From Acidobacteriota bacterium (GTDB lineage: Bacteria; Acidobacteriota; Terriglobia; Acidiferrales; UBA7541), in contig PMAA01000193.1 in assembly GCA_003152355.1 (NCBI GenBank), positions 1 to 37,308 on the forward strand: a stretch of DNA of 37,308 nucleotides, in the 5' to 3' direction. Position numbers and translations under genes: made by a program. The first letter of the stretch is position 1. Each line of letters opens with the position of its first letter. Shown in pieces: positions 19,923-23,777 of this stretch. The notes under the pieces were generated by a model. It ran no database searches. It had not been told where the DNA came from and was given only the letters and a program-made list of their open reading frames with translations.

Positions 19923-19990
19923 AGGCTCAGACGGGTCCGGCCAAACTCTAAAACGAGGGACGGGGCAGGTCAGGCCGGCTCGAGTGAGGG

Positions 19991-20035
19991 AGGGCGCTAT
20001 CCCACAGGGGTGGATGGCGCCCTTCATTTCTTGTG
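19991..20035 (+). terminator. Intrinsic terminator after the fasciclin gene
   Basis: agggcgc (19991-19997) pairs with gcgccct (20017-20023), with additional inner pairing, and is followed by tcatttcttgt. It lies inside the track's extended glgB reading frame, which argues that the extension is not translated. Confidence 0.6.
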
Positions 20036-20085
20036 CACGCGTTTCGCTCGACAATCCGGGGTATCGCGCGACGCCCGCACAGGAT

Positions 20086-20114
20086 TTGGCGTACAGTAAG
20101 ACCTCCGCTAGAAT
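20086..20114 (+). promoter_or_regulatory. Candidate promoter of the branching-enzyme gene
   Basis: TTGGCG (20086-20091), 17-nt spacer, TAGAAT (20109-20114). The -10 box overlaps the ATG at 20113, so if it is real, translation must begin further downstream. Confidence 0.4.
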
Positions 20115-22449
20115 GAGGGCGCAATCCCAGGCGTGCCGCACCAGCGCGCCGCTTCCCTTGCCCGATAAACGACAATCCGATGGCGGCGCGCAAGCCGCGC
20201 CTGCTCACGATCTGCTCTCAATCGAGCTGAATGCCCTCGTACGCGGGGAGCATTCGGATCCATTCCATATCCTGGGACCGCACTACGAAGAAGTTAGCGG
20301 CAAGAATTCCGTCATCGTGCGCGTGTTCCGGCCCGGCGCCGAATCGGTTGCTGTGATTTGGAGCGGCCGCACTTCGCCGGTTGCCGCGGCGCGCACTGCG
20401 GTTGACGACATTTTCGTTGCCGCGATTCCCGTGCAAGTGCCGGAGCTCGCTGTCGGCCAGAAATTAGGGCCAATTAATCCGACGACGTATCGTCTCCGGG
20501 TTACCTACTCCGACGGCCGCGTCGAAGAAGGCTACGACGCCTACGCCTTCCCGCCGGTCCTGACGGAATTCGATCTGCACCTGATCGGCGAAGGCACGCA
20601 CTATTTCAATTACGAAAAGCTGGGCGCGCACGTCCGCGAGCAGGAAGGCGTTCGCGGCGTGCACTTCGGCGTGTGGGCGCCGAACGCGCGGCGCGTGAGC
20701 GTCGTCGGCGATTTCAATCACTGGGACGGCCGAACGCATCCGATGCTGAGCCGCGGCTTCTCTGGAATCTGGGAGCTTTTCGTCCCCGGCCTCGATCACG
20801 GCGATCTCTACAAATTTGAAATTCTCTCGCAGGTAGAACATCAGCTCGCGCTGAAGGCCGATCCATACGCCTTCTACGCCGAGCTTCGGCCGAATACGAG
20901 CTCGATTGTCTACGACGTGGATCGTTACCACTGGAACGATGCCGAGTGGCTCGAGCAGCGCGCCAAACGCGATCTATTGCGCGCGCCGCTTTCCATTTAC
21001 GAAGTGCACCTCGGCTCGTGGCGCAAGCGCGACTCCGAAGGCGGGCGTTGGCTTACCTATCGTGAGCTCGTCGACGAATTAATTCCTTACGCCAAAGAGA
21101 TGGGCTACACGCATCTTGAGCTGATGCCCGTGATGGAATACCCGTACGACGGATCGTGGGGCTACCAGACGGTCGGATATTTCGCCCCGACCAGCCGCTA
21201 TGGCGAGCCGGATGATTTCAAGTTCTTTGTGGATCGCTGCCATCAGGCGGGACTCGGCGTCATTCTCGATTGGACGCCCGCACATTTTCCGCGCGACGCG
21301 CACGGCCTGGCATACTTCGACGGTACGCATCTCTACGAGCACGCCGACCCTCGTAAGGGCACGCAACCGGACTGGGGCACGCTCGTCTTCAATTACGGCC
21401 GGAACGAAGTGCAAAATTTCCTGGTGTCCAATGGGCTTTTCTGGCTCGAGAAGTATCACGCCGACGGCCTTCGCGTGGATGCCGTCGCCTCCATGCTCTA
21501 CCTCGACTACTCGCGAAAAGAGGGCGAGTGGATTCCGAATCAGTTTGGCGGCAGAGAAAATCTTGAGGCAATCGCATTTATAAAGAAACTGAATGAAGTC
21601 GCCCACACGCGAAACTCCGGCATCCTGATGATTGCCGAGGAATCCACTTCCTGGCCGGCGGTCTCGCGTCCTACTTATGTCGGAGGGCTTGGCTTCGATC
21701 TGAAATGGAACATGGGGTGGATGAACGACACGCTGAAATATTTCTCCGAGAATCCGATCCACCGGAAATATCACCACAATCAGCTTACGTTCTCGATGAT
21801 GTACGCTTTCACCGAGAACTTCGTCCTTCCGCTGTCGCACGACGAAGTCGTGCATGGCAAGCAATCGCTGCTCTCGAAGATGCCCGGCGATGATTGGCAG
21901 CAATTCGCAAATCTGCGGCTGCTGTTCGCGTATCTCAACGCGCATCCGGGCAAGAAGCTGCTGTTCATGGGCTGCGAACTCGCGGAGCGCCACGAATGGG
22001 GGGAAACCCGAAGCATCGAATGGTCGCTCGAAGAATCTCCGCCGCACAGAGGAATGCAGCGCTTAGTCGCCGACCTGAACCGTCTGCATACGTCCAACCC
22101 GGCGTTTCACGAAGTGGATTTCGAGTGGAAGGGATTTGAGTGGCTCGAAGTCAACGACTTGGATCGCAGCACGTTGGCATTCATCCGGCGCGCGGCTGAT
22201 CCAAGTCAGTTCGTGCTCGTCGTCTGTAATTTCACTCCAGTCGTTCGGGCCGATTATCGAGTGGGCGCGCCTGTGGCCGGCTCCTATCAGGAGTTCTTCA
22301 ATTCCGATTCTTCCTATTACGGCGGCGGCGACGTTGGCAATCTCGGCGGAGTCATGACTGAGCCTATACCGTGGAATGGCCAGCAATTCTCCCTAAAGAT
22401 CACGTTGCCGCCCCTTGCCGTGATCTACTTCGCGCTCCAGCGCGAGTAA
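20113..22449 (+). CDS. glgB: 1,4-alpha-glucan branching enzyme
   Basis: Makes alpha-1,6 branches in glycogen. The 778-aa form has an N-terminal N1/CBM48 part ([16 protein letters not shown]), a second CBM48 ([22 protein letters not shown]), and a GH13 barrel with [21 protein letters not shown], the nucleophile D456 in GLRVDAV, acid/base E509 in MIAEEST and D577 in LSHDEVVHG, all in the expected order. Length is slightly above the usual 730 aa because of an N-terminal tail. The track start at 19984 runs through a terminator hairpin and is unlikely. The ATG at 20113 is the next candidate but overlaps a promoter-like -10 box and has no ribosome site, so the true start may be later, before residue LSIELNALV. 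No other glycogen gene is adjacent. Confidence 0.93.
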
Positions 22450-22627
22450 CCGCTGGCGTTTGAACGCCGCAACGGAGAATACCTTTTCAGAGCCTGGAGC
22501 CTCCCGCCTCCGGGAGCCAATCGAAATCGAAGGCAATTGCCGCGCATAAAGATTCTTCGCCTCGAAGGAACTTTTCGCAACCCAGCTCCGTATATCCCTC
22601 CAGCAGTTCGAAAGAAAGGAATATGAA

Positions 22628-23269
22628 ATGAATAAAACGCTGCAGTTGGGTGCTGTTCTCTGTCTGTTGGCCGGTTTCGTGGTCATGGGCGCAGTAGCCG
22701 TCAAGAAAACGGCCGCCGCTGCCACTCCCGAAAAGTTCATCCACGTTCGAGTCAACGATGTTTCGAAAGGGGAGATGGTCAGCGTCAATCTTCCACTATC
22801 TCTCGCTGAGAAAGTCATCCCCACAATTCACAACGGCAACCTCCACAACGGAAAAGTCACCATCGGGAATATGGACATGCAAGACGTCGACGTTCGCGCG
22901 CTCCTCGCCGCGGTAGCCAGTTCCCCAGACAACGAGTTCGTAACCGTGAAGGAAAAGGACCAGGAAGTGCGCGTCGCGAAGTCAAAAGGCAACTTCATCA
23001 TCCACGTGACCGACCTGAACTCGGATTCAGACGAATCGAACAAATCAGACAAGTCAGACAAAAAGTACGAAAAGCGCGGCCAGAAAGTGGATATAACCAT
23101 TCCGATATCGGTCGTCAACGCGCTCGTCCCGAACGAAAGGCAGGAGCTCGACCTCGTGGCCGCAATTCACGCGTTGAGCAACGCCAGTGAGGCGCTTCTC
23201 GTAACTGTGCACGACGGAACCCAAGACGTAAGAATCTGGATTGATTCGCAGAACGACGGCTCGAAGTAG
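22628..23269 (+). CDS. Exported protein of unknown function with two copies of a repeat domain
   Basis: I do not recognise a named family. The 213-aa protein has an N-terminal hydrophobic segment (MNKTLQLGAVLCLLAGFVVMGAVAV) that acts as signal or anchor. Two related units follow: about 37-127 (FIHVRVNDV...VSVNLPLSLAEKVIP...VDVRALLAAVASSPDNEFVTVKEKDQEVRVA) and about 152-210 (VDITIPISVVNALVP...LDLVAAIHALSNASEALLVTVHDGTQDVRIWI). A Ser/Asp/Lys-rich linker (SDSDESNKSDKSDKK) joins them. Each unit is a strand ending in a proline, a helix, an A-rich helix and a V-x-V hairpin. The next gene carries the same unit, so the pair looks like a tandem duplication. aaagga about 8 nt upstream of the ATG fixes the start. 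It follows glgB after 178 nt containing small hairpins. Confidence 0.75.
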   Translation: MNKTLQLGAVLCLLAGFVVMGAVAVKKTAAAATPEKFIHVRVNDVSKGEMVSVNLPLSLAEKVIPTIHNGNLHNGKVTIGNMDMQDVDVRALLAAVASSPDNEFVTVKEKDQEVRVAKSKGNFIIHVTDLNSDSDESNKSDKSDKKYEKRGQKVDITIPISVVNALVPNERQELDLVAAIHALSNASEALLVTVHDGTQDVRIWIDSQNDGSK

Positions 23270-23300
23270 CCGCGTCGCGGCGCTCGAAAGTGATGACACG

Positions 23301-23777
23301 ATGATACTGCTTGCCAAACTGGCTCTCGGAACTCTGGGAACGGTAGTCGCTGCGGGCGGAGTGATTTCAAGCGAAGGCTTCGTCAGCGTGCGGGTGCACG
23401 AGAAGAAGCCGGACGGAACGCACGTCTCGCTGATCGTTCCGGCGATGGTACTCGATAGCGGCCTGCACTTCGTTCCGAAGGAGAATCTACAAGACGCGGC
23501 GGAACAAGTCAGGCCGTGGCTGCCGACGATTCACGCGGCGATTGACGCCATGAAATCGGAGGGCGACACGACATTTGTAGAAGTCAGAGAAGAGAATCAG
23601 CACGTCACGGTCGCAACGCACAACGGCGCCATCGTCGTGGACGTTGACGATGACGGTGAAACGGTGCACGTCTCGACGCCGCTTCGAGCCATCGACAACG
23701 CCATTGACCAGATCGCAGCCGCGGGCCCAAAAAATTTAGCCCCACCACGCGGCGCGTTCCAATCCACCGCGCCTTAG
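23301..23777 (+). CDS. Paralogous repeat-domain protein of unknown function
   Basis: A 158-aa protein that shares the repeat unit of the preceding gene: FVSVRVHEK...HVSLIVPAMVLDSGLHFVP...WLPTIHAAIDAMKSEGDTTFVEVREENQHVTVATHNGAIVVDV. This is followed by the first half of another unit (VHVSTPLRAIDNAIDQI), where the protein ends. The N-terminus (MILLAKLALGTLGTVVAAGGV) is a single hydrophobic segment, so export or membrane anchoring is likely. I chose the ATG at 23301; the track start 23241 would overlap the preceding gene, and the added residues look non-coding. It lies 31 nt after that gene, so they are likely cotranscribed. Function unknown; repeated beta-rich units suggest a structural or binding role rather than catalysis. 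Confidence 0.7.
   Translation: MILLAKLALGTLGTVVAAGGVISSEGFVSVRVHEKKPDGTHVSLIVPAMVLDSGLHFVPKENLQDAAEQVRPWLPTIHAAIDAMKSEGDTTFVEVREENQHVTVATHNGAIVVDVDDDGETVHVSTPLRAIDNAIDQIAAAGPKNLAPPRGAFQSTAP

What the first reader, a model, noticed from the sequence alone, without database searches (positions are those of the whole stretch)
22628..23777. Two adjacent exported proteins built from a shared, internally repeated domain
Gene 1 has two copies of a unit of about 60-90 aa (strand ending in Pro, helix, A-rich helix, V-x-V hairpin). Gene 2 has one copy plus the first half of another before it stops. Both have an N-terminal hydrophobic segment, and the genes are 31 nt apart. I cannot name the family. The truncated unit in gene 2 and the charged linker in gene 1 suggest recent or ongoing repeat shuffling. 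The repeated VxV pattern could be a beta-sandwich binding module.
Basis: partly seen in the sequence, partly recalled or inferred. Interest (0 to 1): 0.55.

Follow-up and report, generated by a model that had tools for sequence, protein, structure and literature searches.

The report
Envelope-stress protein pair of soil bacteria
Two neighbouring exported proteins built from copies of one unnamed domain turn out to be conserved targets of an alarm switch (an ECF sigma factor) that also turns on known membrane-stress proteins, so they are probably part of an acidobacterial version of the phage-shock envelope defence.

Summary
Gene 1 (22628-23269) has two complete copies of one alpha/beta unit. 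Gene 2 (23301-23777) has one copy and the first half of a second. The genes are 31 nt apart. Profile comparison and AlphaFold agree on the repeat. The charged 'linker' is a loop inside unit 2. 'Recent or ongoing shuffling' is not supported: the architecture, half unit included, is shared across the order.

The domain has no Pfam or NCBIfam model. It is the domain that follows the SHOCT-like (DUF2089-C) hairpin in other phyla.

Main new result: 61 nt before gene 1 lies an ECF-type promoter (GGAACTTTT-N13-CGTA, 22567-22592), conserved in 44 of 48 orthologues of the order (0.02 expected). The same element precedes one orthologous ECF sigma operon (30 of 30 loci examined) encoding sigma factor, zf-HC2 anti-sigma factor, LiaI/LiaF-like membrane proteins and Toastrack. 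It also precedes exported Toastrack, PspC and DUF6249 genes elsewhere. The pair is best read as output of a sigma-W/Lia/PSP-like envelope-stress regulon. Regulon membership is well supported in silico; the molecular action (periplasmic scaffold at the inner membrane) is inferred.

The parts
22567..22592 (+). ECF-type promoter element: -35 GGAACTTTT, 13 nt, -10 CGTA; starts 61 nt before gene 1
   Evidence: Only match in the window, even allowing 1 mismatch (expected 0.07). Conserved upstream of gene 1 in 44/48 orthologues of the order vs 0.02 in shuffles.
22628..23269 (+). Gene 1: exported protein, two complete alpha/beta units, 213 aa
   Evidence: family in 68/95 genomes of the order and 90/396 of the phylum sample
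22628..22726 (+). Signal-peptide-like N-terminus of gene 1 (about residues 1-33)
   Evidence: Hydrophobic segment read from sequence; predicted helix 3-19, low confidence; A-x-A-like ends in orthologues
22736..22984 (+). Gene 1 unit 1 (residues 37-119: strands 37-44, 49-56, helices 57-66, 89-98, strands 102-109, 112-119)
   Evidence: AlphaFold model, hhalign
22991..23245 (+). Gene 1 unit 2 (residues 122-206), with a charged loop (about 130-150) between its first two strands
   Evidence: AlphaFold model, hhalign
23301..23777 (+). Gene 2: membrane-anchored paralogue, one complete unit plus the first half of a second, 158 aa
23304..23375 (+). Gene 2 N-terminal hydrophobic helix (residues 2-25), probable membrane anchor
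   Evidence: AlphaFold helix 2-25; sequence
23379..23621 (+). Gene 2 complete unit (residues 27-107)
23628..23720 (+). Gene 2 half unit (residues 110-140: strand, strand, helix)
   Evidence: AlphaFold; complete in deep relatives L097/L124, L110, L123, L130

Best explanation
Genes 1 and 2 form a two-gene operon that answers cell-envelope stress. An ECF sigma factor, encoded elsewhere in the genome (G000 contig C231) and presumably held by its membrane zf-HC2 anti-sigma factor, reads the promoter at 22567-22592. The same promoter element drives the sigma factor's own operon (LiaI/LiaF-like membrane proteins and a Toastrack protein) and, in this or related genomes, genes for exported Toastrack proteins, PspC and DUF6249. 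Shown in silico: domain homology, the conserved pair, the conserved promoter, and its sharing with this regulon. Inferred: gene 1 is secreted into the periplasm; gene 2 is held in the inner membrane by its N-terminal helix with its domain facing the periplasm; the two paralogues bind each other and/or the Toastrack/LiaF-like proteins through their related domains and form a scaffold at the stressed membrane. The half unit of gene 2 would be the likely docking surface.
For: Conserved pair: 68 and 67 of 95 genomes of the order, adjacent and co-oriented in nearly all; 27 of 30 phylum-level loci have gene 2 beside gene 1. Promoter: 44/48 orthologue upstreams vs 0.02 expected; in about 40 sampled loci, mostly 10-18 kb, all 16 strict motif matches lie right before gene 1; order-wide 149 matches vs 14 for the reversed pattern. 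Sigma link: of 24 sigma genes in the own genome and 18 in G047 exactly one in each has the motif in promoter position, the two are orthologous, and 30/30 examined orthologues have it. Sigma operon by Pfam: Sigma70_r2/r4_2, zf-HC2, B-box + LiaI-LiaF TM, LiaI-LiaF TM, LiaF-TM + Toastrack (Toastrack part complete in G047, the own contig ends inside that gene). Other motif-bearing genes: Toastrack, PspC, DUF6249, PadR by Pfam; a further 29 loci gave 12 Toastrack, 7 DUF6249, 3 PspC, 2 gene 1, 1 HlyD-like. In B. subtilis yvlABCD is in the core sigma-W regulon (PMC3498285) and YvlB interacts with PspA and LiaH (PMC9239133). In deep relatives the domain is encoded in ECF sigma/zf-HC2 operons. The sigma orthologue is missing from genera g10 and g12 (10 genomes), which also lack the pair.
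Against: No expression or binding data exist here; the sigma assignment rests on a shared promoter element. 15 genomes have the sigma but no pair, 8 the reverse (mostly incomplete assemblies; Fisher p 0.0014 on phylogenetically dependent data). The autoregulated promoter ends CGTT, the targets mostly CGTA. In other families of the phylum the motif is rare upstream of gene 1 (5/32). The orientation of gene 2 in the membrane and any gene 1-gene 2 contact are not tested. The SHOCT-like relatives seen here lack export signals.
Confidence: 0.65

Rival explanations
1. Feedback sensors: the pair is made under the ECF sigma factor but acts back on its anti-sigma factor or the LiaF/Toastrack proteins in the periplasm, tuning or shutting off the response, rather than protecting the membrane.
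For: In deep relatives the domain sits inside or beside sigma/anti-sigma operons, C-terminal to TPR/HEAT repeats or alone behind a signal peptide, where regulators of the anti-sigma factor would be expected.
Against: In the order the pair is not in the sigma operon, and it is absent from 15 genomes that keep the sigma factor, so it is not an obligatory part of the switch.
Confidence: 0.22
2. Surface or substrate-binding modules unrelated to stress (the first reader's binding-module idea; for example carbohydrate binding, because glgB is upstream).
For: Exported, repeated small domains; glgB lies within two genes in about half of sampled relatives.
Against: glgB linkage is inconsistent, the pair has its own conserved promoter starting 118 nt after the glgB stop, no fold match to binding modules, and homologues are SHOCT-like proteins and sigma-operon proteins.
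Confidence: 0.07
3. The conserved element is not an ECF promoter but a binding site for another regulator.
For: No transcription start is mapped; the element was defined by sequence only.
Against: It is not palindromic; -35 GGAAC, the AAC-N17-CGT spacing and the 30-110 nt distance to start codons are those of ECF promoters (own knowledge); one ECF sigma gene per genome is preceded by it, in 30/30 orthologues.
Confidence: 0.06

Closest known systems
SHOCT-like_DUF2089-C proteins (PF22746) with a C-terminal alpha/beta domain, e.g. L132, L133, L135-L137 (Puniceicoccaceae, Dehalococcoidales, Hydrothermus, Firmicutes, Caldiserica)
   Same: The C-terminal domain is homologous to the units of gene 1 and gene 2 (hhalign 97.7%, E 2.3e-12 and 96.8%, E 2.3e-10)
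   Different: Window proteins have a signal peptide or membrane helix instead of the SHOCT-like hairpin, two (or one and a half) domain copies, and occur as a pair
B. subtilis yvlABCD (YvlB SHOCT-like + Toastrack, YvlC PspC) in the sigma-W regulon; Lia and PSP systems
   Same: ECF-controlled regulon with Toastrack, PspC and LiaI/LiaF-like proteins
   Different: The window pair carries a different domain, no Toastrack; Toastrack proteins here have signal peptides; PspA not looked for
Toastrack neighbourhoods with B-box, LiaI-LiaF-TM, PspC and a linked sigma factor described in PMC11237479
   Same: The sigma operon here (L241, L242) has this kind of content
   Different: That paper's main text does not mention Acidobacteria; I saw no mention there of this promoter, the regulon or the exported two-gene pair
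Acidobacterial ECF sigma/zf-HC2/TPR-HEAT operons with the same domain (L111, L118-L121)
   Same: Same domain, mostly behind a signal peptide (hhalign 98.6%, E 7.7e-16)
   Different: Single unit per protein, fused to TPR/HEAT or alone, inside the sigma operon

Membership tests
SHOCT-like_DUF2089-C protein (PF22746) | SHOCT-like helical hairpin, about 32 residues | tested here: not met
   No Pfam hit in either protein; no PF22746 match in the own genome
Domain found C-terminal to SHOCT-like | Profile similarity over the whole domain | tested here: met
   hhalign 94.7-97.7% for the three units; shuffled controls far lower for the gene 1 unit 1 comparison; SHOCT-like hairpin of the relatives confirmed by Pfam
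Toastrack (DUF4097) | DUF4097 profile, beta-helix fold | tested here: not met
   No DUF4097 hit for either window protein; one of 49 gene-1 members at E 0.043 only; predicted fold alpha/beta
Regulon of the C231-type ECF sigma factor | Shared promoter element at promoter distance, conserved in orthologues | tested here: met
Regulon of the C231-type ECF sigma factor | Sigma-dependent transcription in vivo or in vitro | not testable with these tools
   No expression data
PSP/Lia-type envelope-stress system | PspC, LiaI/LiaF-like and Toastrack partners in the same regulon | tested here: met
   PspC-type targets seen in relatives, not in the own genome's motif list
PSP/Lia-type envelope-stress system | PspA homologue | not tested
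   Not searched for in the genome
PSP/Lia-type envelope-stress system | Induction by envelope stress | not testable with these tools
   Needs an experiment

The most novel reading that the evidence does not exclude
Acidobacteriota of this order have an ECF-driven phage-shock/Lia-like envelope-stress response, with one autoregulated sigma/anti-sigma/LiaF-Toastrack operon and a scattered regulon, one main output of which is a two-gene pair built from an unnamed domain that elsewhere follows the SHOCT-like hairpin.
Probability: 0.6. Interest if true: 0.7.

Novelty: new variant of a known kind. Interest (0 to 1): 0.6.

Why it matters
It turns two anonymous 'hypothetical exported proteins' into predicted targets of a definable stress response in an abundant but poorly understood group of soil bacteria. 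It supplies a promoter that can be used to read out the regulon, and it gives a domain without a Pfam model a functional setting that reaches from Acidobacteriota to Chloroflexi and Firmicutes.

Tried and rejected
Pfam and NCBIfam naming of either protein: only sub-threshold, inconsistent hits. PDB by sequence and by fold: nothing at E<=0.001; the best sequence hit is an implausible dynein chain at 0.007. Single-sequence scan of genome contigs with gene 1 found nothing. Plasmid search with a domain consensus found nothing. A SHOCT-like query written from memory served only as bait: the real sequences it fetched, checked by Pfam, carry the argument. glgB operon idea: rejected because the pair has its own promoter and the linkage is patchy. 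Housekeeping sigma-70 promoter: none found in the region. Ongoing repeat shuffling: rejected.

Full report
What is there. The window holds a two-gene unit on the + strand: gene 1 22628-23269 (213 aa) and gene 2 23301-23777 (158 aa), 31 nt apart. Both begin with a hydrophobic helix. Neither protein has a Pfam or NCBIfam assignment.

The repeat is real. Alignments of 62 gene-1 and 56 gene-2 relatives were cut into units and compared as profiles: gene 1 unit 1 vs unit 2, 98.2%, E 5.6e-14; gene 1 unit 1 vs gene 2 unit, 99.0%, E 2.4e-18. Column-shuffled controls never exceeded a score of 16.6 against 66-94 for the real comparisons. AlphaFold models (pLDDT 84 and 88) show the order strand-strand-helix-helix-strand-strand for each unit, and strand-strand-helix for the half unit of gene 2. 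The charged stretch in gene 1 is the loop between the first two strands of unit 2, and its length varies among orthologues. Fold searches of the PDB gave no match at E<=0.001, so the fold cannot be named from solved structures.

Not ongoing shuffling. Gene 1 is present in 68 of 95 genomes of the order and gene 2 in 67, adjacent and co-oriented in all but about three. Across the phylum sample 90 of 396 genomes match the gene-1 profile, some only through other proteins with the domain; 27 of 30 fetched loci also hold gene 2. Gene 2 ends after half a unit in every order member aligned. Complete second units occur in four deep rows (L097/L124, L110, L123, L130). On the gene-1 tree these need two changes, none within the 36-row clade that holds the window. 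The direction (loss from a complete unit) is the simpler reading but is not proven.

Which domain it is. In other families of the phylum the same domain occurs singly, behind a signal peptide or C-terminal to TPR/HEAT repeats, in operons of an ECF sigma factor and a zf-HC2 anti-sigma factor (L111, L118-L121). In L130 the pair itself is divergent from such an operon. In other phyla the domain follows the SHOCT-like_DUF2089-C hairpin (L132, L133, L135-L137; hairpin confirmed by Pfam), with hhalign 97.7%, E 2.3e-12 to gene 1 unit 1. Pfam has no model for this C-terminal domain.

The promoter. GGAACTTTTCGCAACCCAGCTCCGTA (22567-22592) begins 61 nt before gene 1 and 118 nt after the glgB stop. It is the window's only match, even with one mismatch allowed, and there is no sigma-70-type site in the region. 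With the pattern GGA(A)AC-N-TT-N14-CGT, 44 of 48 gene-1 upstream regions of the order match (200 shuffles: mean 0.02, max 1), as do 5 of 32 from other families of the phylum. This pattern was refined on these sequences, so the shuffle figure is optimistic. The first version gave 47 of 80 against 2.0, and the genome scans below use a fixed pattern with its own control. In about 40 sampled loci, mostly 10-18 kb, the strict motif occurred 16 times, always right before gene 1.

The regulon. GGAACWTTT-N13-CGTA occurs 27 times in 12 relatives against 0 for the reversed pattern, and 149 times against 14 in 95 genomes. Genes directly downstream include Toastrack proteins with signal peptides, zinc-ribbon PspC proteins, DUF6249, a PadR regulator, MacB-like permeases, HlyD-like adaptors and a small family without a Pfam model (the MacB and HlyD names are by eye). 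In a further 29 loci: 12 Toastrack, 7 DUF6249, 3 PspC, 2 gene 1, 1 HlyD-like, 2 small membrane proteins. In the own genome the CGTA form precedes the pair, an exported Toastrack protein (L144, DUF4097 E 3e-14) and one member of the small family (L139).

The sigma factor. Of 24 sigma-70 region-2 genes in the own genome and 18 in G047, exactly one in each has the motif in promoter position; a second perfect match in the own genome (L219) points away from its sigma gene. These two genes are orthologous and open an operon: sigma, zf-HC2 anti-sigma, B-box + LiaI/LiaF-like membrane protein, a small LiaI/LiaF-like protein, and LiaF-TM + Toastrack (the own contig ends inside the last gene). All 30 examined orthologues have the element upstream, with CGTT as the -10. 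The sigma orthologue (E<=1e-40) is found in 75 of 95 genomes and is missing from the genera g10 and g12, which also lack the pair. Over all genomes: both 60, pair only 8, sigma only 15, neither 12, Fisher p 0.0014. The genomes are related and partly incomplete, so this p-value overstates the evidence.

Interpretation. The content resembles B. subtilis yvlABCD, in the core sigma-W regulon (PMC3498285), whose YvlB interacts with PspA and LiaH (PMC9239133). It also resembles Toastrack neighbourhoods with B-box, LiaI-LiaF-TM and PspC proteins and a linked sigma factor (PMC11237479). I therefore read the pair as envelope-stress output under this sigma factor. What the two proteins do there is inference: a periplasmic protein and a membrane-anchored paralogue that dock through related domains and scaffold the stressed membrane. 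A feedback role on the anti-sigma factor is the main rival. The membrane orientation of gene 2 was not tested, and the published view that SHOCT-like-linked domains act on the cytoplasmic side (PMC11237479) is a caution.

Novelty. The domain has no model in the libraries searched, and the few literature searches made turned up no description of the pair or of this regulon. The library holds only open-licence papers, so absence is weak evidence. The parts are of known kinds (ECF switch, Toastrack, PspC, LiaF-like), hence 'new variant of a known kind'.

Noticed in passing
L243-L272 versus gene-1 upstream regions: The sigma operon promoter always ends CGTT (30/30) while gene-1 promoters mostly end CGTA (41/44); a consistent, unexplained difference between autoregulation and target sites.
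   Followed up: partly
L139:1548-1826, L158:1192-1455, L166:1564-1818: A small protein family of 85-93 aa (no Pfam hit for the member scanned, L166) follows the same promoter in three genomes.
   Followed up: partly
L111:7609-8043, L121:7594-7995: A further signal-peptide protein with the same domain lies upstream of the ECF sigma gene, so these operons carry three proteins with the domain.
   Followed up: partly
L133:501-842: The gene just upstream of a SHOCT-like protein looks like the same domain with hydrophobic segments inserted after the second strand.
   Followed up: no
L150:1565-1903, L163:1088-1471: PspC proteins with an N-terminal zinc ribbon lie under the same promoter element.
   Followed up: partly
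window 19984-22449: The glgB-like gene upstream is within two genes of the pair in about half of 20 sampled relatives, without evident functional link.
   Followed up: partly
L140 / G000:C57:14291: A CGTT-type copy of the motif lies divergent from another ECF sigma gene; may be chance.
   Followed up: no
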